Made by a program: the position numbers and the translations under genes. From positions 1,488,001 to 1,552,000 of the forward strand of contig NZ_CP080575.1 of assembly GCF_019575955.1 (NCBI RefSeq): a stretch of DNA of 64,000 bases, in the 5' to 3' direction. Within the stretch, counting starts at the first letter, position 1. The number at the start of each line of letters is the position of its first letter. The notes beneath the pieces are model-generated. The model made no database searches. It was not told the origin of the DNA and saw nothing but the letters and a program-made list of their open reading frames with translations. The DNA is from Nesterenkonia pannonica (GTDB lineage Bacteria; Actinomycetota; Actinomycetes; Actinomycetales; Micrococcaceae). This document shows, one piece after another, positions 1 through 64,000 of this stretch.

Positions 1-726
1 TGCTCACCGGTGCTGATCGTCGTGGGCCTGATCCTCTTTGTGCTGCTGGTGCAGCCTGCGCCGAGTGTGATCCGAGCAGCAGTGATGGGCAGCATCGGGG
101 CGCTGGCGGTATTCGCTTACAGGGGAGGGCCTCATCGGCGCTGCTGTGCCTGTGCACTGTGATCCTGCTGCTCTATGACCCATACTTCAGCACGGAGTAA
201 GCGTTTCAGCTGAGCGTGACGGCCACGGCTGGGATTGTGCTGACGGGTCAGCCGATGAAGGAGATCTTCGAGCAGCGTATGCCGGGGATTGTGGCAGGGC
301 CCTTGGCCCTGGCGGCGTCCTCCCAGCTGTTTGTGACCCTGTGCTTCTGCCGATCGCCGCGGGGGTGAACACCTACAGCATTCCGGCGAACATTGCAGCT
401 GGTCCGCTGCTGCCCTTCGTCACCGTTCCGGGGACGCTGGCCGCAGTGCTGTCCACGGCTGTGCCGTGGCTGAGTCAGGCGCTGCTGTGGTGTGCGGGGT
501 TCCCGGCTGCGGGCATTGCCGTGATCGGCAGAACGTTCGCGGGTCTGCCGCAGGCGTTGGCGCCGTGGCCCGAGGGCCGGTGGGCCTGGGTTTGGTGCTG
601 GTGTACCTCTCCGGCTCCGTGGTGCTCTCGCGTCTGCTCATCGGCAGGAGAGCACCACGGAGGTGGGAGAAGGTGACCCTGGCCGTGGTGGCCGGGGCGG
701 TGGCTGCGGTGATCAGCCCTGGGTGA
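1..726 (+). CDS. comEC: ComEC/Rec2-family DNA-uptake channel, C-terminal part
   Basis: Membrane channel that passes transforming DNA across the cytoplasmic membrane; the 5' part lies outside the window. The readable frames give a run of hydrophobic helices and the family signature DP-x(n)-F-x-LSVTATAGI around 175-240. An in-frame TAA at 198-200 sits where the family has Pro (STE-P-AFQLS); AGCCGGCG read as AGTAAGCG explains it. Further breaks are near 130, 335 and 585. The protein ends at 726 without the metallo-beta-lactamase domain many ComEC proteins carry, so it is either a short form or cut by an error. Its last 14 bases overlap the end of the convergent rpf gene. The family call is good; the exact product end is uncertain. 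Confidence 0.7.
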
Positions 727-1503
727 CGGGGAGCTTCAGCTCGTCGCCGACGAAGATGAGGTTGGGGTCCTCCACCTGGTCGGTGTTGGCGCCCCACAGG
801 TCGGTCCACTCGAGGCCGAGCTCGTCGGCGATTTGAGCGAGGGTGTCGCCCGACTGAATGGTGTAGGTCTCGTCCGAGACCTCAACGTCAGTGTTCGGCT
901 CAGCGGAGTAGGCAGCGGAGTAGCCGTTGGACTGACTCTCTGGTTCAGGCTGCGGCTCTGGCTGGGGCTGAGTCTCGGGCTGGGGCTCTGGCTCTGGCTG
1001 CGGCTGCGGTGCAGGCTGAGTCTGCTCCTGCTGCGGAGCGGACTGCTGGGGAGCCTGCTGCTGAGGAGCGGACTGCTGCTCCTGCTGCTGGGAGCCTGCT
1101 GCTGGCTCTGACCGCCCGTGTTGGAACCAGAGCTGGTCGCGCCGGCGTTCGGGCTCTCACCGTAAAGGCCGAGCTGGGAAGCACATGACGGCCATGCACC
1201 CCACCCCTGAATGGCGTGAAGCTGCTGGGCGCGGCTGATCTGCTCGGCCTTGGAAGCCTGCGAAGGCAGTCCACTTCCGCCTACGGCCTGCCATGACTGC
1301 TGGGAGAACTGCAGGCCACCGTAGTATCCGTTGCCGGTGTTGATGGACCAGTTGCCGTTGGACTCGCACTCAGCGAGGCGGTCCCAGACGTTAGAGGCAG
1401 AGGCCACGGGAGCCTGGGCCACGATTGCGCCGCCGGAGATGGCTGCTGCGGCAATGCCTCCGCCGATGAGCCTCTTGAATGTGGAGTGCTTAGAAGTCTG
1501 CAT
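713..1503 (-). CDS. rpf: Resuscitation-promoting factor: secreted transglycosylase-like domain plus LysM
   Basis: Secreted muralytic protein that cleaves peptidoglycan and promotes resuscitation and growth. Residues 1-36 are a signal peptide ending near VASAS. Residues 38-110 are the Rpf domain (WDRLAECESNGNW, GYYGGLQFSQQSW), with the catalytic Glu in the ECESNG motif. A Gln/Pro/Glu-rich linker follows, then a C-terminal LysM domain (YTIQSGDTLAQIADELGL) near the end. The linker is broken by a lost C near 1090, which hides the LysM in another frame; the true stop is the complement of 713-715. A purine-rich ribosome site (GAAGGAAAC) precedes ATG 1503. Rpf plus LysM is the Micrococcus-type architecture. 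Confidence 0.88.
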
Positions 1504-1713
1504 AGTTGTTCTTTGTTTCCTTCAACGAGTGAACGGGATGGGAAGGCCTGGGTCACACCCAGGTCACGAGTTGTTCGGAGACCATTCAAATGTCTCAATT
1601 CGATTGCGTCAAACCCCCGCAATGCGGTAAAAGTCGGCAAAAACCCCGGAATCGCGGGGATGCGGGGCTGTTATCAACCTGTTATCTTGTTTTATGTGAG
1701 AAAACTGTGAATC
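1504..1713. promoter_or_regulatory. AT-rich rpf upstream region with hairpin
   Basis: This 210-bp region between divergent rpf and the 3' end of dnaE2 is clearly more AT-rich than its surroundings. It holds a perfect small hairpin, CCTGGG-TCACA-CCCAGG, at 1547-1563, which would lie in the rpf 5' leader, and a GCGGGGATGCGGGG stretch near 1655. It must contain the rpf promoter. Actinobacterial rpf leaders often carry c-di-AMP riboswitches, but I could not match one here. Confidence 0.35.
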
Positions 1714-4700
1714 TCACAATGGTGTGCCGCTGCGCTGCCATTCGTTCCACATGTGCTTAAGGTCCCATGCCTCTTCGGCCTGCAGGAGACTCCTCGGGCG
1801 CCGGTGCGGCGGATGCGCCCGCGGATGATCATCAGGCGGGTGCCGAAGAGCAGGGGGCCGTTTCCTGTGCGTCCTCGAAGAACGTGGTGTCGGCACAGCC
1901 TGTGCCGTCGTCGAGGCTGATGAACACCGTCCGCTTCCCGGAGCGCATCGGCGGGGTCTGGGTGGCCACCCGGATTCCGGCGACGAGCACCTCGGTGTTG
2001 TTGCGTGCGTGTCGCAGCTCTGCGGCGGCGGTGACGCCCAACTCCTGCAGCATGGGCCGGTAGGTCTCGATGACGTGTTCGCTGATCTCTGAGGAGAGCT
2101 CCTGGAGCTCATCGGCGGTGCGCTCTCCGGCGGTGGGGTCCGGCACGGAGGCGTCCATCAGGGCTGCCTCCTCGAAGAGCTGGGGCTGGTCCGGGTCATG
2201 CGGGGCCGCGCTGCTTCTGCGGGGAGGCTGTCAGCTGCCGCACGTAGGTGATGATGCTGCCGCGGGTGCTGGTGTGGTCTTCGGCGCTGAGGCTGTCGAA
2301 TGCGCCCAGCTTCGCCAGCCGCATCATCAGGGCCCGGGAGGGGCGAGCCTGCTGATAGACCTCGTAGATGGAGGTGTAGGGACGGTGTTCGATGATGCGG
2401 GAGATTTCGGCGTCGCTGATGCCGCGGATGTCGCGGAGGCCGAGCCGGATGCCCTTCTCCTCGGCGGTGATCCGTTCAGTGCGGTAGCCAAGCGTCGGAG
2501 GCGTTGATGTCGATGCCCAGCAGGGGAATGAGCATGCGGCGAGCTTCGGCCATCAGCAGTAAGCGGGGGTACATGCCGGGGTCGTGCTCGAAGATGGCCG
2601 TGAGGAACTCCACCGGATAGTGGGTCTTCAGCCAGGCGGACTGGTAGGTGGGCAGGGCGAACGCGGCGCCGTGAGCCTTGCAGAACCCGAAGCTGCCGAA
2701 GCTGCGCAGAGCCTTCCAGAGCCTGTCGATGTCGGCGTCGCTGAAGATGCGGTTGTTGTCCTCGTCGGTGTTCCGGGCAGTGCGCTCCCTGAACTCGCCT
2801 TCGATCTGCTCGGCGTCCTTCTCCATCCGGCGGCGCAGCTCGTCGGCCTCAGCCAGGGAGATGCGCATGGTGTCGGCGAGGATCCGCAGCACATGCTCGT
2901 GGTAGAGCACTACCCCGTAGGAGTCCTGCAGGAAGGGTGCGAAGCGCGGGTGGAGATAGTCGATCCCGCGGAAGCCGTGCTTGCGCTCCACGAAGGGGTG
3001 ACCATGTCTGCCTTCATCGGACCCGGTCGGAACAGGGAGATGTCGGCGATGAGGTCCTCGTAGCGGTCCGGCTGCAGCTTGCCGATGAGCTCGCGCTGGC
3101 CGGGGACTCGATCTGGAACATCCCCAGGGTGTGGGTGGTGCGGATAGCCGCGAAGGTGGCCTCATCGTCCTTGGGCAGTGAGTCCAGGTCGATGCGGCCC
3201 TCGGGAGACGTAGGGGCATCTGGAGCCAGGCCGCCCTCCACCGCGGCTGCCGGGCCGTTGATGCGCTGGATCTCGTCGACCGCGTAGGCAAGGGTCGACT
3301 GCATCCGCACCCCGAGGACGTCGAGCTTCAGCAGCCCCATGTCATCGATGTCGTCCTTGTCGAACTGGCTCATCGGCAGCCCGATGCCGGAGGGCTGGGT
3401 GGGTGTGGTGGAGAGCAGCCCTTCGTCGCCGAGGATCACTCCGCAGGAGTGCATGGAGATGTGGCGGGGCAGTCGGTCGAGGCGTTCGGTGAGGTCCACC
3501 AGCAGGTCCACCTGGGGTTCTGCGGAGACCAGCTCGGCGATGTCGCGCAGCTCCGGCTTGGAGTCCAGGACCTGCCGGAATTCGCGGGCGTTGAACCGCC
3601 AGAGGCTCTCGGCGATCTGGTCGATGCGATGCTCCTCCATGCCCAGGGCCAGGCCCGCGTCCCGGGCGGCGCCGCGGGCGCGGTAGCGGTTCTGCATGGA
3701 GAGCAGGGTGACCTGATCGTGGCCGTAGCGTTCGAAGATCGCGTGGTAGACCTCGTGCCTGCGGGCGGATTCGATGTCGACGTCGATGTCCGGCAGGGTG
3801 CTGCGCTTGCTGCCCAGGAACCGTTCGAACAGCAGGTCATGCTCCACCGGGTCCACGTTGGAGATGCGCAGCAGGTAGGTCACCAGGCTTCCGGCGCCGG
3901 AGCCTCGGGCCTGGGCGCGAACCCCATGTCGCGGATCATGTCGACCGTGTCTGCGACGGCCAGGAAGTAGGTGCTGAAGCCGAAGGCGCCGATGGTGCCC
4001 AGCTCCATGTCGAGGCGTTCGTTGAGGTCCGTGAGCTCCTGGTAGGCGGCGTGCGGGTAGCGTTCGGCGAGCGCGGATCGGCATCGGCGGGCCAGCACGT
4101 CGGCGGGGTCGTCCGCGATGCCGAGGATCTCCAGCTCGGGGACCTTGGGGTGGCGCCACCGCAGGTCGGTCTCGGGGTCCAGCTGGCATGTCCGGGCGAG
4201 GCGCTCGGTGGCGGAGAGCATGTCCACGGCCTGCTCTCGGCGCAGGTGGCGTGCTCAGCCAGGGCGAAGGCGAGCTGGTGCATCGTCTCGGGCGGCTTCA
4301 GCCATGCCTGCCCGTTGGGCTGGGGGCGAAGCTTCCCAGGGGCAGCAGGTGCGCGGCGGCGTCGAGCACGTCGCCGGTGAGGGCGTCGTCGGGCTGCAGG
4401 TAGCGCACCGCGTTGGTCAGCACTGCCGGGATTCCGCAGGTGTGGGCCAGGCTCAGCATGTCCGCGGCGTGCTGCATGCTTGCCGACTGGCCGGGCTGGG
4501 TGCTGTGGCAGACGACCTCTAAGGCCACGCCTCCGGGCAGCAGGTCGCACCATTGGCTGAGCAGCTTCTGCGCGGCGGGCATGTCTGCGGCCAGGACGGC
4601 GTGGCCCACATCGGAGTGGGGTCCCAGCAGCACGGTGCCGGTGGGGCCTGAGTCGTCCTGCAGGAAGACCGCGGGTCGGCGCTTGTCGATGAATGCTTCA

Positions 4701-5081
4701 CGGTGGGTGGAGCCGTGGCGGGCCGAGGTGCGGCGTCGGGCTCCGCGTTTGGGTGCGTGGGCGGAGGAGACCAGTCGGGCCAGTCCGGCCCAGTAAGCGC
4801 CGCCGTTGCGGCCGTGGGCCAGGATTGTCACTTCGGTGGGAGCAGCCTCTGCGGCGCCCTTGCGGGGCTTCTCGCGCACCTGGAGGCTGACTCCACGATG
4901 GGGGCCAGGCCCGCTTCGATGCAGGCCCGGATGTGGCGGACGGACCCGTAGAGGCCGTCCCTGTCGGTGATGGCGGCTGCGGGGCGCCATGGTCCGCCGC
5001 GGCCTGGACCAGCTCTTCGGGCCGGGCGGTGCCGTGGTGTGCGGAGAACACGCTGCAGGCGTGCAGGTGGGTGAAGCGCAC
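1714..5081 (-). CDS. dnaE2: Error-prone DNA polymerase III alpha subunit DnaE2
   Basis: SOS-induced translesion polymerase of about 1120 residues. In order: PHP domain (FTHLHACSVFSAHHG), polymerase core with catalytic acidic triad region LPDIDVDIES near 3780, the MHSCGVI and FGFCKAHGAAFA motifs, and a C-terminal OB-type domain. Start chosen: GTG complement of 5079-5081, preceded by AGGAGGT and 22 bp from the LexA box; an upstream ATG at 5111 would overlap the operator. Frameshifts from lost G/C occur near 1850, 2215, 2995, 3110, 3905, 4245, 4310, 4870 and 4990. GCCGGC-type errors lie at 2487 (insertion), 2558 (R read as L in MYPRRLL) and 4792 (GW read as YW). No imuA or imuB is adjacent. Confidence 0.9.
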
Positions 5082-5103
5082 GGTATCCGAAGGCACCTCC
5101 TGT

Positions 5104-5119
5104 TCGAACATACTTTCGA
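5104..5119. promoter_or_regulatory. LexA (SOS) box upstream of dnaE2
   Basis: TCGAAC-ATAC-TTTCGA differs by one base from the actinobacterial LexA consensus TCGAAC-N4-GTTCGA. It lies 22 bp before the GTG start of dnaE2 and about 70 bp before divergent dgt, so SOS control of dnaE2 is strongly suggested; control of dgt is possible but not shown. Confidence 0.85.
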
Positions 5120-8167: not shown

Positions 8168-8171
8168 CAGG

Positions 8172-9158
8172 CTACGGGGCACGCCCGAGAACAAGCTCAG
8201 AAAGGGCCCCGTCCAGCTCGCCCAGGGCCTGCAGGTCATGTGTTGAGGTCGAGGCCATGATCTCGGCGGCCCCTGTGCGCTCCGCCAGGGCCTCCAGCTG
8301 AGGCCCCACCGCGCTCGCCGATCCGGCCACCGCCTGGTGGAGCCCCTCCTCGACGCGCTCAGCTGTCCTCCGGCTCCATGATTGGGCCCGAATGGTCTCT
8401 GGGGCCTCCAGCGGCCCGAACTCGCCCGTCTCTCGGGACCGGGCCATAGCCCAGATCTCCGGCAGCGCAAGCTCCTGAGCCTCTTCGGCGGTGTCTGCGA
8501 CATAGATGTCCAGGGAGATGATCACCTCAGGCTTGGCAGCCTGCGCGCGTGGACGGAACGTCCGGCGGTAGTCGCGCAGCATGTCGGTGAGCTCCTCGCT
8601 GTGCAGGACAGGGCCTCCCACCACGACGGGCAGGCCCAGCTCCGCGGCGAGGCTGATGCCCTTCCCGGTGGCGAGCAGGAACATCGGCGGCGGCTCACCC
8701 ACCGTGGGCTGGGCGGTGACCTCAGCGGTGCCCTGGAGGTACGCGCTGAGCTCACGCAGATCGTTCGTGAAATCCTCCGCCTCCCCGGACTCCTGACGCA
8801 GCGCACGCCGCACCGGGGAGTGAACCCGAGGGATCGTCCCAGGCCCAGGTCGATGCGCCCGGGATGGAGGCTCTCCAGCATGAGGAACTGCTCTGCGACG
8901 ACGAGGGGCTGGTGGTGGGAAGCATCACCCCGCCGGACCCCAGCCGAATGCGGGAGGTCTTGGACGCCGCAGCTGCGAGCACCACAGTAAGCGCCCCGAT
9001 GCCACCCCGGGCACCGCATGGTGCTCGGCAGCCCACAGGCGGTGGTAGCCGAGCCTCTCGGCCCGCACGGCCCGCTCCACGGTGTGGTGCAGGGCAACCC
9101 CAGGGGCATAGCCCAGCCGGGTCCGCGACCGGTCAAGAAGAGAAAGCCTCACGCGCAC
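8172..9158 (-). CDS. LLM-class flavin-dependent oxidoreductase (luciferase-like)
   Basis: Bacterial-luciferase-like TIM-barrel monooxygenase of the MsnO8/YhbW type, FMNH2-dependent. Landmarks: RLSLLD start, [12 protein letters not shown] near residue 45, [13 protein letters not shown] near residue 75, [20 protein letters not shown] and [18 protein letters not shown]. Start taken at GTG 9158; GTG 9152 is an alternative. The stretch at 8986-8992 reads AGTAAGC on the plus strand; restoring GCCGGC turns the odd GALTVV into GAPAVV, the usual sequence here. A lost base lies near 8820 and another near 8940. First gene of a three-gene operon with DUF2200 and a flavoprotein, divergent from the HAD gene. 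Confidence 0.83.
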
Positions 9159-11203: not shown

Positions 11204-12263
11204 GTGACACTGGTATCTGCCTATGTAGCTGAGTCCGCCGAATCACCCCTGACCCTGGGGACCATCGAGCGCAGAGAGCCCGGCCCGCACGACGTGCAGA
11301 TCGACATCCACTGGTCCGGCATCTGCCACTCAGACATCCACACCGCCCGCGGCGAGTGGGGCCCAGCACCGTACCCACTTGCCGTCGGCCACGAGATCGC
11401 CGGTGTCGTCACAGCCGTGGGCGAAAAGGTGAGCCGTCACCAGGTCGGCGACCGTGTGGGCGTGGGCTGCATGGTGAACTCCTGCCGTGAGTGCGAAGCC
11501 TGCCGGGCAGGGTTCGAGCAGCACTGTGAGAAGGGCATGGTCGGCACCTACGGTGCTGAGGACCGTGACGGGACCATCACTCAGGGCGGCTACTCAGGCA
11601 GCATCGTCGTTACCGAAGACTTCGTGCTGCGCATCCCGGAGTCCCTTCCTTTCGAGGAGACTGCGCCGCTGCTGTGCGCCGGCATCACGACATACTCCCC
11701 GCTGAAGCACTGGGGTGCCGGGCCCGGCAAGAAGGTAGCAGTGGTCGGCATGGGCGGCCTGGGCCACATGGCGGTGAAGATCGCCCACGCCATGGGAGCA
11801 GAGGTGACGGTGCTGTCGCAGACGCTGAGCAAGAAGGAGGACGGCCTGCGCCTTGGCGCCTCCGACTATCGGGCCACGAGCGGCGAGTCCACCTTCACGG
11901 ACCTCCGCAACCAGTTCGACCTGATCCTCAACACAGTCTCCGCCAGCGTGGACCTCAACGCGTTCCTGAGCATGCTCCGCTTCGACGGTGCCCTGGTCAA
12001 TGTGGGCGTGCCCGATCAGCCCCTGAGCATCGACACCGGCACGCTCTTCACGAACCGCCGGGCGATGGCTTAGCTCCATGATCGGCGGCATCGCTGAGAC
12101 CCAGGAGATGCTGGACTTCTGCGCCGAGCACAGCATCACACCCGAAGTGGAGATCATCGATGCTTCGCAGGTCAACGAGGCCTGGGAGAACGTGCTGGCC
12201 TCAAAGGTCCGATACCGCTACGTCATCGACATTTCGACGCTTCCGGAACCAGCAGAGGTCTGA
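11204..12263 (+). CDS. Zinc-dependent NAD(P) alcohol dehydrogenase (cinnamyl-ADH type)
   Basis: Medium-chain dehydrogenase/reductase of about 350 residues that interconverts alcohols and aldehydes. Catalytic zinc ligands are seen in SGICHSDIH and VGHEIAG; the structural zinc lobe is [15 protein letters not shown]; the cofactor site is [17 protein letters not shown]. It belongs to the CAD/YahK group ([16 protein letters not shown]). The stop TAG at 12071-12073 falls within GCTTAGC where the family has RRAMAGSMIGGI; restoring GCCGGC rejoins the two halves. It starts at GTG 11204 after GAAGGAG. No other break was noticed. Confidence 0.88.
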
Positions 12264-12310: not shown

Positions 12311-12910
12311 GTGACTGCGAACAACACTTCTTCTGCGAGCAACACCTCTGACAAGACTCCCGGGGCGACTGGTCCGGGCGGCTGGTATGGATCGACTGCG
12401 AGATGACGGGACTTGTCCCTGAGCGGGACGTCCTCCTCGAGGTCGCTGCGCTGGTCACCGACTCAGAGCTCAACATCCTGGGGAGGGCGTCCAGGTAGTC
12501 ATCAAGCCGGAGTCGGGCGCGCTGGATGCCATGGGTTCCTTCGTGCGGCGGATGCACACGGACTCAGGATTGTTGGACGAGCTGGAGTTGGGAGTGAGTC
12601 TGGGGAGGCCGAGTCAAGGGTCCTGAAATACGTGAAGGACTGGGTGCCTGAGGCGAACACGGCCCCATTGGTAAACAACTCGGTTCACGCCGATAAGGCG
12701 TTCCTGCGACTCGGCATGCCGCAGCTGATGGAGCATCTGCACTACCGGATCATTGATGTGTCCACTATCAAGGAACTGGGCAGCCGTTGGTATCCGAAGC
12801 AGTATGAGGGCCGCCCGGCGAAGACGGGCAACCACCGCGCCTTGGGTGATATTCAGGACTCCATCGACGAGCTGAAGTACTACCGGGAATCTATGTTCCG
12901 ACAGGACTAG
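12311..12910 (+). CDS. orn: Oligoribonuclease
   Basis: 3'-5' exoribonuclease of the DEDDh family that degrades 2-5-nt RNAs, including pGpG; usually essential. ExoI motif [22 protein letters not shown], ExoII region [11 protein letters not shown] and Exo[21 protein letters not shown] are all present and in order. About 200 residues after repair; the Thr/Ser/Asn-rich first 25 residues are an extension. Breaks lie near 12372, 12482 and 12595. GTG 12311 is taken as start. It is followed by tRNA-His in the same orientation, a common actinobacterial arrangement. Confidence 0.9.
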
Positions 12911-16943: not shown

Positions 16944-18703
16944 ATGACGAGCCCGACGTCCGAACGCGCCCCGCACGTGCTCTCGGGCACCCGGGGACCG
17001 CTCGTCGAAGGGCTCATCGGCTCCCTTCTCATCCTCCTCGGATCATTCGGGGTCGGCTGGCTCATCACCGCCTCGCCCATTGCACGCATGGACTGGGTCA
17101 TCAGGCTGCGCACCGAATCCGACGGCGTCATCCTCTCCACGGTGATCCTCACCCTCGGCTGCTGGATCATGTTCCGCGCCTGGCTGCGTCTCGGCAAAGC
17201 CCTGGGCGAAGCCAAGCTTCACCAGCAGCAGGACGACGTCGCCACGCAGAACCAGCCCGCTGACGGCAGAAGCAAAGTCCAGTGGCCGCCGGGGCCCTGA
17301 AGACCGTCAACATCGCAGTGGCCCTCTGGAGCCTGCCGCAGCTGATCGTCGTGCCGATCTTCTCCCGGGACGTCTTCGCCTACCTCAACCAAGGCCGCCT
17401 CGTCCTCGCCGGGCAGGATCCCTACGTCTCCGGGGTCTCAACCCTCGAGAACTGGTTCCACCTCGGGACCGACCCCTATGGGCAGAGGACGAAACCCCTA
17501 CGGCCCCCTCTTCCTCTGGATCGAAGCCGCCGTGATGCGCATCGCCGGGGACGCCCCAGACCTCGCGATCCTCCTCTTCCGGCTCGCCTGCGTCGGCGGC
17601 GTCGTGCTCGTCATGATCTACCTTCCCAAGCTGGCCGTGCTGCACGGAGTCGACGGTGCGCGTGCCCAATGGATCGCGTTGGCCAACCCCTGCTGATCAT
17701 CAGCTTTATCTCCAGCGCCCACAACGACGCCCTCATGATCGGCTTCGCCCTCGCCGGGGTCTGGTATGCCGCCCACGGCCGCGGAGTCCTGGCGACCTCA
17801 CTGATCGTCCTGTCCATCGGCATGAAGCCCATCACCCTGGTGCTGCTGCCCTTCATCGGACTGCTATGGGCCGGACCGGGCTCCGACTGGGCCAGGAAGT
17901 TTCGCTGCTGGTTCGCCACCGCCGCACTGGCTTAGCGCCATGCTGTTCGCCATCGGCCTCGCCCAGGGGTACGGCTTCGGCTGGGTCGAAGTCATGGTAA
18001 GCACCGGCACCGGTGCGGTCTTCTGGTCCCCGGTCGGCATCGCCGACGGGCTGCTCTCCGGGGTGCTCAGCAACCTGGGGCTCACCCATTACTGGACCCT
18101 CGACACCCTCCAGCTCATCGGCCGCCTCACCAGCATCCTCGTCGTCCTCTGGCTGATGTTCCGCGGCCGCGACGACCGCATCACCCAACGCATGATGTGG
18201 GCCTTCACCGCGCTGGTGGTGTTCTCACCCATCATCCAGCCCTGGTACCTGCTCTGGCTGCTTCCCCTGTTCGCCATCACCGGGATCAGGTCGAACTGGC
18301 AGCTCAAATGGGTCGCGTTCACCGTCGCTTTCTTCCTCACCTTCGGCGCGGCCGATCAGCTCTCTATTCACCAGTTCCTCGGCCTCGATCAGCAGATGGA
18401 GATGCTCTCCCTCGCCATCTCATACACCTGCCTGGTGGTGCTGGCACTGGTAGACCCCGGAACCCGGTGGCTCATCTGGACCGGATGGCGCCACCGCAGC
18501 CTGCCGCCGATCAGACCGGGGTCCACCCCGTCGTGGGAAAGTCTCCGACGCGACGCCCGACCACCCGCAGCCCCAGCCCGCTCGACACCAGCCAGAGTCC
18601 AGTGCCTGACGGACGGTTCTACCCGAAGACCGGACCCATCTCGACCATGGGCGCCCCAAAGAGCCGCAGGGGTTCCGGATCACGCGCGGCGTCAACGCCC
18701 TGA
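16944..18703 (+). CDS. Polyprenol-phosphate-mannose alpha-1,6-mannosyltransferase, MptB-like (copy 1)
   Basis: GT-C fold integral membrane glycosyltransferase with about 12 helices; uses polyprenyl-phosphate-mannose on the outer face to build the mannan core of lipoglycans. The extracytoplasmic catalytic loop has [20 protein letters not shown] (acidic Asp after Arg) and the [10 protein letters not shown] motif; later come [28 protein letters not shown] and the [14 protein letters not shown] signature. GCTTAGC at 17930 replaces the GCCGGC of TAALAGAMLF and adds a false stop. Lost bases lie near 17280, 17470, 17690 and 18520. The C-terminus is read to TGA 18703 after one frame change; this end is uncertain. 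Confidence 0.82.
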
Positions 18704-20310: not shown

Positions 20311-21632
20311 ATCTGAGATCCAGACTGCTGTGGGGGCTGCTGGCCGCCGCAGCCGTGGGGCAGCCCTGTCCCTGCTCGCCGTCCAATGGTGCCGCGTCAA
20401 CGGATGGACTGACCCGGACCAGCACCTGGCCATGTGCTACTCCGACTTCGCCCTGCTCTACGGCGAGCGCGGCCTCGCCGACGGACTGTTCCCCTTCGTG
20501 GACGACGTGCCGGACGGTCAGGTGATGGAGTATCCGGTGCTGATCGCTGTGGTGGCCGGAGTGATGGCCGCGGCCGTGGATCTCATCATGCCCGGAAGCG
20601 GGGCCACTGATGCCCGGACGCTGGCCTTCTATGACCTCAACCACCTGGCCGCCGTGGCCTGCTGGGTCGGGGTGGTGCTCATCACCGCCCTGTCCACGGC
20701 CCGGTCGCGACGGCGCGACGCGCTCATGGTGGCGCTGGCTCCGGGGATCATCCTTTCCTGTCGATCAACTGGGACATGTGGGCGGTCTTCCTCGGCGGAG
20801 CCGGTCTGCTGCTCTGGGGAGGGGGCGGCCCGGCTGGGCTGGTGTGCTGCTGGGCCTCGGGGCAGCGATGAAGCTCTACCCTCTGTTCTTCCTCGGAGCG
20901 ATCCTGGTGCTCGCCGTCCGCGCCGGGAGAATCCGTGACCTCGTCGTCGTGCTGATCACCGGCGTGGCCTCCTGGTTGGCGGTGAACCTGCCGTTCATGC
21001 TCACTCAGTTCGACCAGTGGGCGACCTTCTACCGGTTCTCCTCCGAGCGGGAAGTCAGCTTCTCGTCCATGTGGCTGGCCTTCACGTGGCTGCCCTTGGA
21101 CGGGGAGGGCTTCAGCCTGCTGTCCAATGGCCTGTTCCTGATCTGCTGCCTGGCCATCGCATGGCTGGGTTGGGCGGCTCCGCGTCGGCCGCGCGCTGCC
21201 CAGCTGTGCTTCCTGATCGTGGCGAGCTTCATTCTTTTGGGCAAGGTCTACTCGCCGCAGTTCGTGATGTGGCTGATCCCACTGTTCGTGCTGGCGCTGC
21301 CCCGGGTGAGGGTCTTCATCATCTGGATGGCCGTCGAAGCGTTCCACTGGGCGGCGGTATGGCTGATGAGCGCGAAGATCACCTCCGGCGGTGAGATCGG
21401 CGGCGGACACCACCTCATCGAGGTCGCCTACGGCACCGGCATCGCAGCGCACATGGCCGCGGTCATCTGGATCATGGTTCTCGTGGTCCGGGACATCCTC
21501 CGCCCCGACAGCGATGTGGTGCGTGCCGCCCACGGCGGTGAGGACCCGCTAGCGGGAACCGTCACCGGTAAGCAGGACGTCTTCACCCTCCCGGGCCGGG
21601 GCCAGCCTACCCGGCTGAGGCTGCAGTGGTGA
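20307..21632 (+). CDS. GT87-type (DUF2029) membrane glycosyltransferase
   Basis: Polytopic GT-C enzyme, about 440 residues and ten or more helices, likely a polyprenol-phosphate-mannose-dependent branching or elongating mannosyltransferase. Features: luminal loop with VMEYPVLIAVVAGVM (the EYP motif), SINWDMWAVFLGG, GLGAAMKLYPLFFLGA and VYSPQFVMWLIPLFVL. Breaks lie near 20360, 20752 and 20820. GTG 20307 overlaps the preceding TGA. It forms an operon with the two MptB-like genes; together they suggest one lipomannan or polymannose pathway. Confidence 0.8.
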
Positions 21633-23145: not shown

Positions 23146-24378
23146 ATGTCTGAGCCGTCCGACCAGAAGAGCCCGCCTACACCTCTTAAGCAGCGTGCTG
23201 GAAGTCTTCCTGATCTTCCTGCGCCTGGGTCTGACGAGCTTCGGCGGACCCGTCGCGCACCTGGCCTACTTCCGTGAAGCCTTTGTGGAGCGGCGCCGGT
23301 GGCTCACCGACAAGGCATACACAGACCTCGTCTCTCTCTGTCAGTTTCTCCCCGGGCCCGCCTCCTCCCAGGTGGGCATGGCCCTGGGCCTGCAACGGGC
23401 CGGCGCCGGAGGCATGCTCGCTGCCTGGGTCGCCTTCACCCTGCCCTCCGCGGCGCTGATGATCGCCTTCGCCTACGGGGTCACCGCAGCCGGGGACCTC
23501 GCCGAAGCCGGATGGGTGCAGGGGCTGAAAGCCGCAGCCGTCGCCGTCGTCGCCCACGCGGTGCTCGGCATGGCCAAAACCATGACGCCCGACGCCGCAC
23601 GAGCCACCATCGCAGCCCTCGCCGCCGGCTGCGGTCCTGCTCTTCCCGCACCCTCTGGTGCTGGTTGCCGCCATCGCAGCAGCCGGTCTCATCGGCCTGG
23701 TGTGGCTGCGCCCTGAGCCGCAGGCCCGCACCGCTGAGGATGCCTTCGCCGTCAGCATTCCCCGATGGGCCTCCTGGACGGCCATAGGAGGATTCTTCCT
23801 GCTCCTGGCAGGCCTGCCTCTGCTGATCTGGGCAGGGGCCGCAGGCCCGGCAGCCGTCGCGGACACCTTCTACCGGGCTTAGCGCACTCGTCTTCGGCGG
23901 CGGGCACGTGGTGCTGCCCCTGCTGCAGGCCGAGACCGTTGAGACAGGCGTCGTAGACTCGGACGTATTCCTCGCCGGGTACGGCGCCGCCCAAGCGATG
24001 CCCGGGCCACTGTTCAGCTTCGCAGGGTTCCTCGGCGCTGCCCCCGACGCCAGCGGCACCGACGGGCTGCTCGGTGCGGCCATTGCGCTGGTGGCGATCT
24101 TCCTGCCCGGCGCGCTGCTCGTCATCGGGTGCCTGCGCTACTGGGAGCGGCTGCGGTACAACCCGACGGCTCAGCGCGTCCTGCTCGGCTTCAACGCCGG
24201 GGTCGTCGGCATCCTCGGCGCCGCACTCTATGATCCAGTCTTCACCGTCGGCGTCCTCGAAGTGGGAACCCCGGCGCTGATCATCGCTGTGCTGGCATTC
24301 GTCGCCCTGAACAGCTGGAAGGTTCCCGCGTGGGCCGTCGTGCTCGTCGCCGGTCTGGCCGGATGGGTGCTTCTCTGA
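23146..24378 (+). CDS. chrA: Chromate transporter, ChrA (CHR) family
   Basis: Two homologous CHR halves, each about 180 residues: FLRLGLTSFGGPVAHLAYFR with QFLPGPASSQVGMALG in the first, and ALVFGGGHVVLPLL with GYGAAQAMPGPLFSFAGFLG in the second. This is the long-chain, fused ChrA form that exports chromate. The false stop TAG at 23880-23882 lies in GCTTAGC where FYRAGALVFGGG is expected. A two-base discrepancy at an intact GCCGGC near 23623 and a break near 23175 (in CTTAAGC) also shift the frame. About 405 residues after repair. Confidence 0.87.
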
Positions 24379-35284: not shown

Positions 35285-36051
35285 GTGAACCAGCTGTTCG
35301 ACGTCACCGGTAGCTCGTGCTGGTCACCGGCTCCTCCCGAGGTCTGGGCCGAGCGCTGGCCCTCACCCTCGCCGAGGCCGGTGCCCGGGTCATCCTCCAC
35401 GGACGCAGCGCTGAAGCTCTGGCAGAGACCTCCCAGCTCATCGAGGAGAGCGGCCAGCGGTCGGCGGGCACAGTCCGCTTCGACGTCACCGACAAAGACG
35501 CCGTGAAGCAGGGGATCGCTGAGCTGATCCAGGACCACGGAGTCCCGGACATCGTGGTCAACAATGCGGGGCTGCAGCGACGGGCCCCGATCCACGAGTT
35601 CGACCCGGACGACTGGGACGCGGTGCTGGCCTCCAATCTCTCGAGCGCCTTCTACGTGTCCCGATTCGTGACGCTTAAGCCATGGTGGAGCGCGGCTCCG
35701 GCAAGATCATCAACATCGCCTCAGTCCAGTCGCACCTGGCTCGCCAGACCATCGCCCCTACTCGGCGAGCAAGGGCGGCGTGGCGCAGCTGACCAAGGGA
35801 TGGCCGCCGATCTGGCCCGGCACAACATCCAGGTCAACGCTCTCTCGCCCGGGTACTTCGCGACCGAGATGAATCGGGACCTGGTGGAGAACGAGACCTT
35901 CGACTCTTGGCTGCGGGCTCGCACCCCAGCGGGACGATGGGGCAGCTTCGATGAACTGGTTAGCGCCCTGCTGTTCCTCTCATCGGATGCGTCGAGCTTC
36001 GTCTCGGGGCAGAACATCTTCGTCGACGGCGGCATGACAGCCGTGGTCTGA
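35285..36051 (+). CDS. SDR, gluconate 5-dehydrogenase-like
   Basis: Classical SDR of about 255 residues, nearest in pattern to IdnO/Ga5DH, which interconverts 5-ketogluconate and gluconate. VLVTGSSRGLGRALALTLAEAG cofactor site, NNAGLQRRAPI, IINIASVQS (Ser), YSASKGGV (Tyr, Lys), SPGYFATEMN and FVSGQNIFVDGGMTAV. Errors at GGTAGC 35309, GCTTAAGC 35673 and probably GGTTAGC 35960 are GCCGGC-type; lost bases lie near 35757 and 35803. GTG 35285 starts 11 bases after gntP. Confidence 0.82.
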
Positions 36052-37454: not shown

Positions 37455-37699
37455 ATGAGCGTCACCGTCTACACCAAGTAAGCATGCGTCCAGTGCAACG
37501 CCACCTACCGCGCTCTCGACAAGAACGGCGTGGCCTACAAGACCGTCGACATCTCCCAGGACGCTGAGGCTCTCGAGCGGGTTCGCGCTCTGGGCTACAT
37601 GCAGGCCCCGTCGTCATCACCGACGCCGACCACTGGTCCGGCTTTCGCCCCGACAAGATCAGCGAGCTGGCTGCCGAAGCGCAGGCAGTCGCAGCCTGA
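37455..37699 (+). CDS. nrdH: Glutaredoxin-like NrdH redoxin
   Basis: 81-residue electron donor for class Ib ribonucleotide reductase. Expected [20 protein letters not shown] with the CVQC active site; [11 protein letters not shown] and [12 protein letters not shown] follow, typical of NrdH. The TAA at 37479-37481 occupies the Pro codon before ACVQC: CCG read as TAA within AGCCGGC. A lost C near 37610 (GGCCCCGTC) shifts the frame for the last third. Stop TGA 37697-37699. First gene of nrdHIEF. Confidence 0.93.
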
Positions 37700-40299: not shown

Positions 40300-40375
40300 C
40301 CCTCCTGCGCGCTGAGCGCGGAGAGCATTGGTTTTCGAGAACATACACAGGCCCCGCCGTCGGCGCCTACCGTGA

Positions 40376-51847: not shown

Positions 51848-54493
51848 ATGAGCAACGAAAACTCCACAGAATCCTCCGCCGAGACGGCGGAGGAGGTCTA
51901 CAGCCCATTCTCCGTTCCTGAGCCCGGTCACCCTGGGGCGGACGCGTCGCCGAAGCGGCCCGCTGACCCGGAGCTTACCGAAGACCCTCTGACGTCCTGT
52001 TCCAGGCCCCTGACCTCTCGTCCGTGAAGCGGACGCCGAAGAAGGAGAAGGAGCCTGAGCCGGAGCCCCACGACGACGGCGACGATGCCGAGGACGACTC
52101 AGACCAGGAGTCCTCCCAGCGGTCGAACGCCGACTCCGGCGGCGACGGCGGCAGGAGGTCCCGGCGGAAGCGCCGCAGGGAGGGCGCAACCGCGGACGCA
52201 GCGCCGACGAGTCATCGCAGGGCCTGATGACGATTCCTCGGGCGGGGGCGACCGCTCTGAGCAGAAGTCTGACTCATCCGACGCAGACGGCTCTTCCGGC
52301 TCCGACGACGAGGCCCGCGCCGAGTCGACTGATGAGAGCGGCACTGTAGTCCGGCGGACCCGCAAGCGGCGCCGCGGCTCCTCAGACATGGAGATCGAGG
52401 ACGAGGACGGCCACACCGTGACCCGGGTGCGCTCCGGACGCGAAGCAAGCTCCGACGCCTCGGACAAGGTCTCTCCGTCAAAGGCTCCACCCGGCTCGAG
52501 GCCAAGCGCCAGCGCCGACGCGGGAACCGTCAGTCGAACCGTCGCGGGATCGTCACCGAGGCGGAGTTCCTGGCCCGCCGGGAGTCCGTGGACCGGAAGA
52601 TGATCGTGCGCCACCGCGACGGACGCATCCAGATCGGAGTGCTGGAGGACGAGGTGCTGGCAGAGCACTACGTCTCGCACACCACCCAGGACTCCCTGAT
52701 CGGCAACGTGTACCTCGGCAAAGTCCAGAACGTGCTGCCCTCCATGGAGGCTGCCTTCGTCGACATCGGACGCGGCCGCAACGCCGTGCTCTACGCCGGT
52801 GAGGTGGACTGGGAGTCTGCTTAAGATCGGCAACGCACCCCGAAAGATCGAGAACGCCCTGAAGTCCGGCGACTCCGTCCTGGTGCAGGTCACCAAGGAC
52901 CCTGTCGGGCACAAGGGCGCCTGGCTGACCAGCCAGGTCTCCCTGCCCGGACGCTACCTGGTGTTCGTGCCAGGGGGATCCATGACGGGCATCAGCCGCA
53001 AACTCCCGGACACGGAGCGGTCGCGGCTGAAGAAGATCCTGAAGGAGAACATGCCCCAGAACTCCGGGGTCATCGTTCGCACCGCCGCTGAGGGCGCCTC
53101 CGAGGAGGAGCTCACCAACGACATCAACAGGCTTCGCGCACTGTGGGACTCCATCCAGGACCAGACCAACGACCGCAAGGTCCTGGCCCCTGAGATGCTC
53201 TATGCCGAGCCCGATCTCACCATCAAGGTCGTCCGCGACGTCTTCAACGAAGACTTCTCCTCCATGGAGATCCAGGACGACGAGACGTGGACAACGTCGA
53301 GGCCTACGTCACCTACGTGGCGCCGCACCTGCTGGACCGCCTGAAGAAGTGGGACCCCGCCGAGCATGACGGGCAGGACATCTTCGCCCACCACCGCATC
53401 GACGAGCAGCTGAACAAGGCCCTCGGACGCAACGTGAAGCTGCCGTCCGGCGGCTCCCTGGTCTTCGACCGCACCGAGGCGATGACCGTGGTCGACGTCA
53501 ACACGGGCAAGTTCACCGGCTCCGGCGGAAACCTCGAAGAGACGGTCACCAAGAACAACCTTGAGGCCGCCGAAGAGATCGTGCGCCAGCTCCGGCTGCG
53601 CGACATCGGCGGGATCATCGTCATCGACTTCATCGACATGGTCCTGGAGTCCAACCGCGACCTGGTCCTTCGCCGAATGGTGGAGTGCCTGGGCCGGGAC
53701 CGCACCAAGCACCAGGTCGCCGAGGTCACCTCGCTCGGCCTCGTGCAGATGACGCGCAAGCGCATGGGCACCGGGCTTCTGGAGGTCTTCCTCTGAGTGT
53801 GAGCACTGCGCAGGACGCGGCATCGTCACCCACGAGGAGCCGATCCACCACCAGCCCGCCTTCAACTCGCAGGGCGAGCAGCGGTCCAACGGCAGCAAGA
53901 AGTCCAAGAAGCGCAAGAACAAGCCCAAGAAGGACGACGACTCCGGGCGGCAGACCGACCCCAGGGAGCTGAAGAAGCTCGAGCGGGCGAGCGCGGGCAT
54001 GGCCAAGGTCGCCGCGGCCACCGCCGGAGCTGGTGAGTCCGAGAAGAACGACGAGCAGGCGCCGTCGGCGGACGCCCAGCAGCTCCAAGAATGAGGATCA
54101 GGCGAAGAGCGGGCAGTCGACGCTGAAGATCGGCGGCGAGCCGGTCGAGGTTCCGCGCGGTGAGAAGTCCGGCGCGCAGAAGCGCGCAGAGGAGCCTGCG
54201 GAGCAGCCCAAGACCTCCTCCCTCGACTCCTTGGAGGAGGCGCTGGCCTCGCGGAGCGAGCAGCCGCGGCGCAGTGCACCTGCTCGACGTCGCCGTCGCG
54301 CGGCGGGGTCGGCACAGGGCTCCGGGGAGAGGTGCACCAGGTGCAGTCTGCGGAGAAGGAGCAGCAGAGTGCCAGCTTCTCCGCCGCAGCTCCCCAGAAG
54401 AGCGCCGATGAGAAGTCGGCGGCCAAGGCTGACACCGCTCCGATGATGCTCGGAGTGGGCGTGTCCGCCGATGAGATTGGCAAATCGGAGTAG
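51848..54493 (+). CDS. rne: Ribonuclease E/G
   Basis: Central RNA-processing and decay endonuclease, about 880 residues. A 230-residue N-terminal arm rich in Glu/Ser/Arg (RRSRRKRRR) precedes the catalytic core: S1 domain VYLGKVQNVLPSMEAAFVDI, then GGSLVFDRTEAMTVVDVNTG and IGGIIVIDFIDM with the catalytic Asp residues, the LVQMTRKRMG motif and the zinc link CEHCAGRG near residue 650, and an acidic/basic C-terminal tail ending GVSADEIGKSE. GCTTAAG at 52819 breaks YAGEVDWESAG-IG. Lost bases lie near 52000, 52180, 52480, 53288, 53797 and in the tail (54058-54330). Confidence 0.92.
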
Positions 54494-54592: not shown

Positions 54593-54904
54593 GTGGTGTA
54601 CGCGATTGTCCGCGCAGGCGGCCGCCAGGAAAAGGTTTCCGTCGGAGATCTGGTGACCCTTGACCGCGTCGACGCCGAGGAAGGCAGCACCATTCAGCTG
54701 CTTACAGTGATGCTGGTCGACGGCGACAAGGTCACCACCGGAGCTGACGAGCTCAACAAGGTGACGGTCTCGGCCGAGGTGCAGGGCAACCTGCGCGGCC
54801 AGAAGATCGTCATCCACAAGTACAAGAACAAGACCGGCTACCACAAGCGCCAGGGCCACCGCTCTGAGCTCACGCGGGTCAAGATCACCGATATCGCGGC
54901 CTGA
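54593..54904 (+). CDS. rplU: Ribosomal protein bL21
   Basis: 103-residue 50S protein, full length. [18 protein letters not shown] start, [41 protein letters not shown] end. At 54700-54705 GCTTAC gives IQLLTVML where the family has LPA; restoring GCCGGC gives IQLPAVML, so two residues here are probably wrong. GTG 54593 or 54596. Followed by rpmA. Confidence 0.97.
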
Positions 54905-55380: not shown

Positions 55381-56990
<1,610 letters not shown>

Positions 56991-59479: not shown

Positions 59480-59644
59480 ATGAGTTTTCCTGTTCTGACC
59501 CTGCTCGCCGAGGAGCACAGCGAGGCGCTGTTCATGCCTACTCTGGTTCGGCATCCTGATGTTCGCATTCCTGATGCTGGCTATGCTGGTGGCTCTGAGC
59601 TTCGCGCAGAAGAACCGCTCACCTCAGGCTGACCCCGAGGCCGC
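59480..59644 (+). CDS. Small single-helix membrane protein between proA and nadD
   Basis: About 55 residues: [23 protein letters not shown], then after a lost T near 59548 [20 protein letters not shown], a single membrane helix, and a short polar tail ([13 protein letters not shown]). A protein of this kind commonly occupies this slot in Micrococcaceae. Its stop is not visible because the frame runs into nadD; the end given is approximate. Confidence 0.55.
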
Positions 59645-62298: not shown

Positions 62299-62522
62299 TC
62301 AGAGTGCAAGCAGCCCATCGACCACGTCAACGAGGTCGTCGCCCCGAACGTCCGGCGCGAGGAAGACTTCGCCAAGCTCACCTTCCAGCCGTTGGAACCG
62401 CATAATGAACGGTTCCAACATGGAAGCATGCTATCCCACCTCCTCGAGCCGTTCTCCAATGGGGCAAGGTCGAGCAGAGTCTCGAGCACATCGAGCACCA
62501 CAGCATCTACGTGACCAGACAT
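62299..62522 (-). CDS. Doubtful small ORF, possible HAD-like fragment
   Basis: Minus-strand reading from ATG 62522 gives MSGHVDAVVLDVLETLLDL, similar to the first motif of haloacid-dehalogenase-type hydrolases. After a frame change near 62450 it would continue to a GELGEVFLAPDVRGDDLVDV tail ending at TGA 62299-62301, but an extra TAG interrupts the second part. It is either a degraded remnant or a short gene damaged by errors. The plus strand here is also partly open (HVNEVVAPNVRREEDFAKL). The rest of 62234-62670 shows no other gene. Confidence 0.25.
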
Positions 62523-62670
62523 GAGGAGCTCATTCGCATCGGGGGCATACGTGTGTTCATCGTTGCTGCGGCAACACGCGGAGAGGAGTCCCACAGGATA
62601 AGAACGACTCTTGTAGCCCCTCGACCGCAGATCTATGATCCAAGTCACATTTCGCGTGAGGAGCCCGATC

Positions 62671-64000
62671 GTGTCAGAGCAAGGGAACATCCGGAACAAT
62701 CTCTGATCAACGGACAATGGGTCGCCCCGGCAGAAGGGACGGCCTACGACGTAGAAGACCCCGCGACAGGCAAGGTGGTCGGCCAGGCCGCAGCCGCCTC
62801 GCCTACTGACGCACACACGGCAGTGCGAGCAGCACGCGCAGCCTTCGACGACCAGCGATGGTCAGGCATGCCCGCGCGGGAGCGCTCCCGCATTCTGCTC
62901 AGAGCCGCATCCCTGATGCGTGAGCACACCGAGGAGCTCGCCCAGGCGGAGAGCCTCGACGTCGGCAAACCCATTACCTTTGCGCGGAACATCGACGTAC
63001 CGAACGCCGCGGACCACTTCGAGTACTACGGGGCGCTTGCCCAGCAGCTCGATGGGTCCGTCAGGAACACTCCGCTTCCGGCGCTGGCCTACACTCGCCG
63101 CGAACCCCACGGGGTTGTCGCAGCCATCAGCCCCTACAACTTCCCTCTGATCCTCAGCTGCTCAAAGATCGCCCCCGCACTTGCGGCTTAAGCAACACGG
63201 TGGTCCACAAGCCCGCACCCCAGACTCCGCAGACCGCTCAGCTGCTCGCCTAAGCATCCTCCAGGAGGCGGGTGTGCCTGATGGGGTATACAACCTCCTC
63301 ACTGGGCCCAGCCCGGAGCTCGGTGCGGCCTTGGTGGAGCATCCTGACGTCAACGCCATCGCGTTCACCGGCTCAACCGCTGTCGGCCGCCAGGTGGCAC
63401 GGACCGCGGGGAGCACCTGAAGCCTGTGGTCGCGGAGCTCGGCGGCAACGGTCCGAACATCATCTTCGAAGACGCGGACCTCGAGGCGGCGGTCAACACA
63501 GCCATCAGCGGGTTCATCTTCAACACCGGCCAGTTCTGCATGGCTTCTACCCGACTCCTGGTCCAAGAGTCCGCCTACGAAGCGGTCCTGAACATTCTGG
63601 AAGGCGCCGTGCCGCACGTTCCGGTCGGCCGACCCAGCGACCCCGGAACCGTGATCGGCCCGCTCATCAGCAGGTCCCAGCTCGAAGGCGTCGAGGCCAA
63701 GATCCAGCAGGCGCTGGATCAGGGCGGGCGGCTCATCACCGGAGGTTCGCGCCTGGAGCAGGACGGCGGCTTCTACTTGAGCCCACGGTGCTCGCCGACC
63801 TTCCCCAGGACGCGCCAATCATCCAGGAAGAGGTGTTCGGGCCGGTCCTCACCGTGCAGTCATTCAGCACGGAGGAGGAGGCCATTCGGCTCGCCAACAG
63901 CACCCCTACGGTCTCGCGGCCGGGCTCCAGTCGCAGAACATCAGCCGCGCGCACAGAGTCTCGGCGAAGCTCGACGCCTAAGCATCGTCTGGGTCAACGG
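62671..64000 (+). CDS. NAD(P)-dependent aldehyde dehydrogenase, 3' end outside window
   Basis: ALDH-superfamily enzyme oxidising an aldehyde to the acid. SLINGQWVAPAEGTAYDVEDPATG start, ISPYNFPLILSCSKIAPALAAGNTVV, ELGGNGPNIIF (general base Glu), NTGQFCMASTRL (catalytic Cys), EEVFGPVLTV and LDAGIVWVNG. Three GCCGGC-type errors (GCTTAAGC 63186, GCCTAAGC 63248 and 63976) and lost bases near 62700, 63410, 63778 and 63905 break it. GTG 62671 follows GAGGAG. Betaine- or gamma-aminobutyraldehyde-type substrate is possible, not shown. Confidence 0.88.

What the first reader, a model, noticed from the sequence alone, without database searches (positions are those of the whole stretch)
196..63983. GCCGGC sites are systematically rewritten into TAAGC/TAGC-type strings
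Wherever family alignments predict GCCGGC, the window shows a TA-containing substitute. AGCCGGC becomes AGTAAGC (196, 2558, 4792, 8986, 37477, 38633). Others become GCTTAGC (12068, 17930, 23877), GCCTAGC (34256), GCTTAAGC (35673, 63186), GCCTAAGC (63248, 63976), GCTTAAG (52819), GCTTAAC (55615), GCTTAC (54700, 56018), GGTAGC (35309) and GGTAGAGC (34484). The restored reading fits the family at each place and is independent of codon frame and coding strand. Essential genes are hit, so this is not biology of the proteins. Inference: consensus basecalling fails at a chemically modified GCCGGC, as seen with nanopore data on methylated motifs, which would reveal a methylation specificity of this organism.
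Basis: partly seen in the sequence, partly recalled or inferred. Interest (0 to 1): 0.85.

Follow-up and report, generated by a model that had tools for sequence, protein, structure and literature searches.

The report
Misread GCCGGC sites, probably methylated
The odd TAAGC-type strings are most likely sequencing mistakes at GCCGGC sites, probably because this bacterium chemically marks GCCGGC with a NaeI-type restriction-modification system; they look like mutations but instead leave a trace of its DNA methylation.

Summary
This 2.70 Mb single-contig genome (62.5% complete) has 686 GCCGGC against 2,412-9,020 in 28 same-genus genomes, and 1,238 GTAAGC/GCTTAC against 30-544. GCCGGC shows the strongest hexamer depletion after sub-word correction. 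Two 23S rRNA copies are an internal control: both conserved GCCGGC sites are altered in both copies, spelt differently in each. In rpoB-rpoC 6 of 6 conserved sites carry TA strings; one string puts a stop into nrdE. G/C runs of six or more are nearly absent, a nanopore-like sign. Other NaeI carriers are not GCCGGC-depleted, so site avoidance is not the cause. Best reading: basecalling fails at m5C-modified GCCGGC. Methylation and platform are inferred; no reads were available. Corrections: 'wherever' is too strong, since roughly a sixth of sites escape (against G013's density), depending on flanks; and TA strings explain few of the frame breaks. A known kind of artefact with a clean likely cause.

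The parts
197..202 (+). GTAAGC where relative G013 has GCCGGC
2559..2564 (+). GTAAGC; G013 has a one-base neighbour of GCCGGC
4793..4798 (+). GTAAGC; G013 has a one-base neighbour of GCCGGC
8987..8992 (+). GTAAGC; G013 differs from GCCGGC at two bases, weak support
12068..12074 (.). GCTTAGC where G013 has GCCGGC (one base longer)
12671..12676 (+).
17930..17936 (.). GCTTAGC; G013 has a one-base neighbour of GCCGGC; frame change near it
17997..18002 (+).
21605..21610 (.). GCCTAC where G013 has GCCGGC; this spelling is only mildly enriched, so uncertain
23877..23883 (.). GCTTAGC; G013 has a one-base neighbour of GCCGGC; frame change near it
29343..29348 (-).
32413..32418 (-).
34256..34262 (.). 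GCCTAGC; G013 has a one-base neighbour of GCCGGC; frame change near it
34485..34491 (.). GTAGAGC where G013 has GCCGGC
35309..35314 (.). GGTAGC; G013 has a one-base neighbour of GCCGGC; spelling class not enriched, uncertain
35673..35680 (.). GCTTAAGC, an enriched spelling, but G013 gives no support here
37478..37483 (+). GTAAGC where G013 has GCCGGC
38634..38639 (+). GTAAGC where G013 has GCCGGC; in-frame TAA inside nrdE (Q*ATPTFLN against QPATPTFLN in G013)
40365..40370 (.). GCCTAC where G013 has GCCGGC; uncertain as for 21605
51973..51978 (-).
52819..52825 (.). GCTTAAG; G013 has a one-base neighbour of GCCGGC
54700..54705 (-). GCTTAC (GTAAGC on the minus strand) where G013 has GCCGGC
55615..55621 (.). 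GCTTAAC where G013 has GCCGGC; stop at the string in the gene
56018..56023 (-). GCTTAC (GTAAGC on the minus strand); G013 has a one-base neighbour of GCCGGC
59536..59541 (.). GCCTAC where G013 has GCCGGC; uncertain as for 21605
63186..63193 (.). GCTTAAGC, the palindromic spelling (30 in the own sample against 1 expected); no relative aligned here
63248..63255 (.). GCCTAAGC; no relative aligned here
63976..63983 (.). GCCTAAGC; no relative aligned here
11678..11683 (.). GCCGGC kept, one of three aligned sites with conserved flanks where G013 has it too

Best explanation
The strings are consensus errors. The cell carries a NaeI-type restriction-modification system whose C5-methyltransferase marks GCCGGC on both strands (inferred from gene content). 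Native DNA was read by a nanopore instrument whose basecaller did not know this mark (inferred from the homopolymer signature). Each strand's read of the palindrome was then called as roughly GTAAGC, so forward and reverse reads disagree (GTAAGC against its complement GCTTAC). The consensus kept one of them or fused them, which gives GTAAGC, GCTTAC, GCTAAGC, GCTTAGC and the palindromic GCTTAAGC (inferred). Whether a site is misread depends on its flanking bases (shown against G013's flank make-up), as a signal-level effect would. The true genome probably has GCCGGC at most of these places.
For: Genome-wide: GCCGGC 686 in own against 2,412-9,020 in 28 same-genus genomes; ratio to the reversed control CGGCCG 0.25 against 0.92-1.46. 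GTAAGC 506+732 against 30-544 in total. GCCGGC is the one strongly depleted hexamer after correction for its sub-words, among hexamers with enough expected counts: z -12.6, next -3.7. 23S rRNA: 4 of 4 conserved site copies altered, with different spellings in the two copies, which also differ in homopolymer lengths. rpoB-rpoC: 0 of 6 majority GCCGGC sites kept, all 6 with TA; in the same alignment other G/C hexamers shared by at least 70% of relatives (and with at least 3 sites) are kept at 16 of 36. nrdE: in-frame stop inside QPATPTFLN. Homopolymers: G/C runs of six or more 5 in own against about 102 expected from G013; GGGGGG 5 per strand genome-wide against 88-395. RM system: PF00145 methyltransferase pieces, PF09126 NaeI pieces (matches to PDB 1ev7 at 6.5e-18 and 2.6e-20) and a Vsr gene within about 2.6 kb. 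In 9 of 10 intact NaeI loci of other genera a methyltransferase 51-70% identical to own's lies beside NaeI; nine other same-genus C5-methyltransferase loci match at about 26-37%, one (G010) not at all, while the G001 remnant beside NaeI fragments matches at 80% over 46 residues. Flank dependence: GCCGGC kept at 89 of about 238 expected in Y..R context, 40 of about 515 elsewhere, p 1.8e-15, and 0 of about 55 in G..C context. Palindromic GCTTAAGC 30 against 1. Precedent: consensus errors at Dcm sites (PMC6591954, passages) and at two motifs in Listeria (PMC10687267, passages).
Against: No read, raw signal or platform label was available, so methylation and nanopore origin are inferred. The methyltransferase and NaeI genes are themselves in pieces in this assembly, so their activity cannot be read off. 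Excess TA spellings in the 464 kb sample (roughly 260, my sum) cover only about 40% of the loss if G013's density is the yardstick (about 624). GTAAGC and GCTTAC are not equal on the contig's + strand (506 against 732), which a simple strand-symmetric model does not predict. One intact NaeI locus of ten showed no such methyltransferase in its short flanks (L234). I did not specifically search for, and did not come across, a nanopore-only assembly without this methyltransferase as a negative control: none of the 28 relatives lacks GGGGGG as own does.
Confidence: 0.9

Rival explanations
1. A platform or basecaller weakness at GCCGGC that does not need methylation: the same error would appear with unmodified DNA.
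For: The assembly is clearly error-rich in general; no unmethylated nanopore control was available here.
Against: GCCGGC stands alone among non-homopolymer hexamers; the genome happens to carry a NaeI system, matched in only 15 of 395 family genomes, own included; Wick et al. report Dcm motifs and then homopolymers as the main consensus errors in K. pneumoniae (PMC6591954, passages).
Confidence: 0.04
2. Another modification or enzyme is the cause: for example the second C5-methyltransferase at G000:C1:1761148, in a prophage-like region, or a non-methyl mark.
For: A second PF00145 gene of unknown specificity exists. Other modification enzyme families were not searched for.
Against: The full, undegenerate GCCGGC is the depleted word and is the site of NaeI, whose gene lies beside the first methyltransferase; that methyltransferase accompanies NaeI in 9 of 10 intact loci of other genera.
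Confidence: 0.04
3. Real loss of GCCGGC by restriction-site avoidance or mutation in the genome itself.
For: Restriction systems can deplete their own sites (recalled); a Vsr gene and m5C deamination could change such sites.
Against: Ten carriers with a full-length NaeI show no depletion: GCCGGC/CGGCCG 0.85-1.70. Avoidance would not yield a stop in nrdE, frame changes, or two rRNA copies altered differently at one site. Deamination would give single C to T changes, not three-base swaps with inserted bases.
Confidence: 0.01
4. Chance: TAAGC-like strings are ordinary sequence and the reader chose them.
For: Two of 17 testable listed sites have no support in the nearest relative; GTAGC and GTAGAGC are not enriched.
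Against: 0 of 100 shuffles reach the GTAAGC count; 1,238 in the genome against 30-544 in 28 relatives.
Confidence: 0.01

Closest known systems
Nanopore consensus errors at Dcm sites (Wick et al. 2019, PMC6591954; passages seen)
   Same: C5-methylated motif misread in native DNA by a basecaller not trained on it, together with homopolymer errors; errors survive consensus.
   Different: Motif CCWGG, not GCCGGC; there measured against a reference with Illumina reads at hand; here inferred from the finished assembly alone.
Modification-mediated nanopore errors at GCAGC and GCTGG motifs in Listeria (Modpolish paper, PMC10687267; passages seen)
   Same: Lineage-specific modification causes motif-centred mismatches; in four strains a methyltransferase-encoding system was found that the unaffected genomes lack.
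   Different: Other motifs; whole-genome amplification removed the errors there. Here changes often run over three bases and may add one or two.
NaeI type IIE restriction-modification (PF09126; PDB 1ev7, 1iaw)
   Same: NaeI homologue in pieces that together span positions 2-267 of the 288-position profile, with a linked C5-methyltransferase and a Vsr gene.
   Different: The genes are broken in this assembly; activity and site were not tested.
M.NgoAIV in Neisseria gonorrhoeae (5mC at GCCGGC; PMC12871193, passages seen)
   Same: Same methylated hexamer, seen by nanopore with a modification-aware caller (32 of 33 GCCGGC sites in pilE and pilS methylated).
   Different: Different bacterium; no consensus rewriting is described in the passages seen.

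Membership tests
Modification-mediated nanopore consensus error | Errors centre on one sequence motif, not on genes or frames | tested here: met
   GCCGGC z -12.6, next hexamer -3.7; rRNA, rpoBC and nrdE alike. Homopolymer errors exist beside it
Modification-mediated nanopore consensus error | A modification enzyme of matching specificity in the same genome | tested here: met
   NaeI, C5-methyltransferase and Vsr genes together; specificity by homology only
Modification-mediated nanopore consensus error | Assembly shows nanopore signature (homopolymer under-calling) | tested here: met
   G/C runs of six or more 5 against about 102; GGGGGG 5 per strand against 88-395
Modification-mediated nanopore consensus error | Errors vanish in amplified DNA or short reads | not testable with these tools
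   no reads available
NaeI-type restriction-modification system | NaeI endonuclease domain PF09126 | tested here: met
   two pieces over the cut-off (103 and 97.9 bits), four pieces in the genome search; PDB 1ev7 match
NaeI-type restriction-modification system | Linked C5-cytosine methyltransferase | tested here: met
   PF00145, 182 and 38 bits in two frame pieces; same pairing in 9 of 10 intact NaeI loci
NaeI-type restriction-modification system | Open, full-length genes | tested here: not met
   both genes are in pieces in this assembly, as are many of its genes, so probably an assembly fault; described as NaeI-like, not as a proven active system
NaeI-type restriction-modification system | Recognises and methylates GCCGGC | not testable with these tools
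   NaeI site GCCGGC from PMC7653180 (passage); PMC4081073 prints it as GCC|CCG (passage), which I take for a misprint. The match with the depleted hexamer is circumstantial
Restriction-site avoidance | Carriers of the system are depleted in its site | tested here: not met
   11 of the 14 other carriers were counted (10 with a full-length match, one partial): GCCGGC/CGGCCG 0.85-1.70; own 0.25

The most novel reading that the evidence does not exclude
A finished public assembly alone can hold a quantitative trace of a methylome. The full recognition site can be read from one depleted word, the substitute spellings show both strands, and the sites that escape (37% in Y-GCCGGC-R, 0 of about 55 in G-GCCGGC-C) may reflect real differences in methylation by flanking sequence rather than basecaller behaviour alone. 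If so, methyltransferase specificities and flank preferences could be mined from deposited long-read-only genomes without raw signal.
Probability: 0.15. Interest if true: 0.5.

Novelty: new member of a known kind. Interest (0 to 1): 0.3.

Why it matters
A deposited genome of this kind shows false stops and frameshifts in essential genes, false rRNA differences and a false shortage of a restriction site; anyone counting pseudogenes, restriction-site avoidance or rRNA variants from it would be misled. In return, the pattern names a likely methylation site (GCCGGC) and its likely enzyme. My literature searches (listings, capped at 10-20 rows for the larger ones, of one open-licence library) showed no paper on this organism's methylation, which is weak evidence of absence. 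It also suggests that some modification specificities can be recovered from assemblies alone.

Tried and rejected
Restriction-site avoidance was tested on other NaeI carriers and rejected. A second affected motif was sought by sub-word-corrected k-mer comparison; among the words listed only homopolymer words stood out beside GCCGGC. I tried G013 and G002 as single references for the window: both are too far (about 66-85% in the aligned blocks, a tRNA block apart) to settle each site alone, so conserved loci (23S, rpoBC) were used. An attempt to show NrdE substitutions used the minus-strand frame, which is a shadow frame; that part is meaningless and was replaced. The query was likewise an antisense shadow frame of the nrdEF region; I use that call only for the genus hint, which DNA identity to a Nesterenkonia contig supports (83.8% over 4.06 kb). 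The paper on Nesterenkonia 118-M6 (PMC13373138, passages) concerns a 3.68 Mb, 99% complete genome, so not this one. An earlier count said 8 of 17 listed sites have exact GCCGGC in G013; the right number is 7. The looser TA count of 15 includes one false case (23974), so I use the strict 13. A paper on nanopore against PacBio for high-GC bacteria (PMC11649196, passages) and one on gonococcal Vsr enzymes (PMC6116569, one passage) were looked at and not needed.
Full report
What the window is. It lies at 1,488,001-1,552,000 of a 2,699,453-base single-contig genome with an estimated completeness of 62.5%.

Observation. In the window GCCGGC occurs 14 times against 60.7 expected from shuffles, and GTAAGC/GCTTAC 26 times against 7.6. 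Genome-wide, GCCGGC occurs 686 times; in 28 same-genus genomes it occurs 2,412 to 9,020 times, while the reversed word CGGCCG is ordinary (2,715 in own). GTAAGC is found 506+732 times, against 30-544 in total in the same 28. In a sample of 464 kb of the own genome (20 stretches of 20 kb plus the window) against 453 kb of relative G013, GCCGGC has 129 against 753 expected, and the gains are GTAAGC/GCTTAC (214 against 41), TTAAGC/GCTTAA (79 against 10) and CTTAAG (38 against 4); GGGGGG/CCCCCC is even rarer in proportion (6 against 114). After correction for sub-words, among hexamers with enough expected counts, GCCGGC stands alone (z -12.6; next -3.7, a G-run word).

Site-level check. Of the 20 sites 17 align to G013: 7 have exactly GCCGGC there, 8 a one-base neighbour, 2 give no support; 3 are not covered (neighbours judged by eye). 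From the other side, 68 G013 GCCGGC sites with conserved flanks align to the window: 3 kept, 13 with a new TA string (strict count), 52 otherwise different. Other G/C hexamers are kept at 700 of 2911 and gain a TA at 97 of 2911. Kept plus TA is 24% for GCCGGC and kept is 24% for the rest, so the TA strings take the place of sites that would have been kept. Three of the 13 are GCCTAC, a spelling with only a mild excess.

Conserved loci. The genome has two 23S rRNA genes. I aligned them with 9 rows from 8 relatives, a part of the 23S loci fetched. Of those 9 rows 8 carry two GCCGGC sites and one carries one; both sites are altered in both own copies, and differently: GCTTAC and GCCTAGC at one, GTTAC and GTAAGC at the other; the copies also differ in several G and C runs. 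In rpoB-rpoC six places have GCCGGC in at least half of 14 relatives; none is kept in own and all six carry TA strings, three of them one base longer. Other G/C hexamers shared by at least 70% of the relatives are kept at 16 of 36. rpoB gives ten separate matches in own, none over the family cut-off; it is over the cut-off in all 15 other genomes searched. In nrdE the change at 38634 stands as Q*ATPTFLN against QPATPTFLN in G013.

Nanopore-like assembly. G/C runs of length five are 374 against 877 expected from G013, length six and more 5 against about 102; A/T runs are less affected. GGGGGG occurs 5 times per strand genome-wide against 88-395. Of 84 G013 frames of 150 or more residues, 22 met my identity and coverage limits in the window; 20 of the 22 are broken there and 2 are intact. 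The frames were picked by length alone, so some may be shadow frames and the broken share may be too high. Of 39 frame changes at most 5, and of 19 in-frame stops 2, lie at TA strings. In the DNA alignment, coding or not, 109 frame-changing indels with conserved flanks were counted: 86 deletions and 18 insertions outside the TA class, 55 of them beside homopolymers; the TA class has 5, of which two are better read as C-run deletions. So the GCCGGC effect is a distinct extra error class, not the main cause of the low completeness.

The enzyme. A search for C5-methyltransferases found two in the genome. One, at 174.5-175.6 kb, is followed within about 1.5 kb by pieces of a NaeI endonuclease on the other strand and a Vsr gene. 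NaeI recognises GCCGGC (passage in PMC7653180; PMC4081073 prints GCC|CCG, which I take for a misprint). Motifs that I recall as typical of C5-methyltransferases (PC, ENV, QxRxR, GNAFP) can be seen in the translated pieces. In a sample of 395 family genomes 15 have a NaeI match, own included. Nine of the ten intact NaeI loci carry a neighbouring methyltransferase 51-70% identical to own's; the tenth (L234) shows none in its flanks. These loci hold only about 1.5 kb on each side, so several matches are partial. I gave 11 of the 14 other carriers to (leaving out G221 and G386, and G001, which one search had counted with a normal ratio of 1.41): their GCCGGC/CGGCCG ratios are 0.85-1.70, against 0.25 in own. 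Owning the system therefore does not by itself deplete its site.

How the spellings arise. GCCGGC is its own complement, and GTAAGC and GCTTAC are complements of each other. If each strand's read of the modified site is called GTAAGC, forward and reverse reads conflict, and a consensus may keep one or fuse both; the fused form GCTTAAGC is enriched 30 to 1 and GCTAAGC/GCTTAGC 41 to 11. This is inference. Flanks matter: with expectations from G013, sites survive in 89 of about 238 cases with a pyrimidine before and a purine after, and in 40 of about 515 otherwise (p 1.8e-15); none of about 55 survive in G-GCCGGC-C. GTAAGC is preceded by G or A in 81% of cases. Such dependence on neighbours fits a signal-level misread.

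What remains open. The + strand of the contig has more GCTTAC than GTAAGC (732 against 506); I have no tested explanation. The excess of TA spellings (roughly 260 in the sample) covers about 40% of the missing sites with G013's density as yardstick; with the sub-word expectation (381 against 129 found), which the loss itself lowers, and in the alignment, it covers about all. No reads, raw signal or platform label could be examined, and no nanopore-only genome without the methyltransferase was at hand as a control.

Known or new. Modification-driven consensus errors in nanopore data are known (PMC6591954 and PMC10687267, passages; PMC12392509, passages, where methylation explained 6.5% of differences and most methylated motifs gave no error), and methylated GCCGGC is known in other bacteria (PMC8565308 and PMC12871193, passages). 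Searches for GCCGGC with nanopore and methylation (8 papers), nanopore with methylated motifs and systematic errors (20 of 1,528 listed), Nesterenkonia with nanopore (10 papers), NaeI with methyltransferase (15 of 33 listed), assembly errors with restriction-modification (12 of 34 listed) and Nesterenkonia with methylome terms (10 of 494 listed) showed no title or abstract on this case; apart from the passages named, these are listings only. It is a new, clean example of a known kind.

Noticed in passing
whole genome; window examples 29462, 33416, 49258: G/C homopolymers of five or more are systematically shortened; GGGGGG is nearly absent genome-wide.
   Followed up: yes
G000:C1:1761148-1761705 (L210): A second C5-methyltransferase gene with an in-frame TAA, among frames that by eye look ssb-like and phage-like (labels recalled, no family search of those frames); specificity unknown.
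   Followed up: partly
G000:C1 + strand: GCTTAC outnumbers GTAAGC 732 to 506 on the contig's + strand, while relatives are near balance; unexplained, possibly a consensus-caller bias.
   Followed up: partly
G001:C7:29633-30218 (L235, L207): A same-genus genome holds NaeI, methyltransferase and Vsr fragments side by side, looking like a decayed copy of the same system.
   Followed up: partly
window 41471-48197 against G013 1712552-1760910: About 48 kb in relative G013 stands against about 6.7 kb in the window between the two collinear blocks: a large insertion or deletion.
   Followed up: no
L152 and L161: The two 23S loci differ by 9 mismatches and 38 gapped positions over about 5 kb; part of this is clearly misreading, so rRNA heterogeneity in this genome should not be trusted.
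   Followed up: yes
window 26226-26319: TPP riboswitch at gathering threshold; tRNA-His at 13025 and tRNA-Ala at 62119.
   Followed up: no
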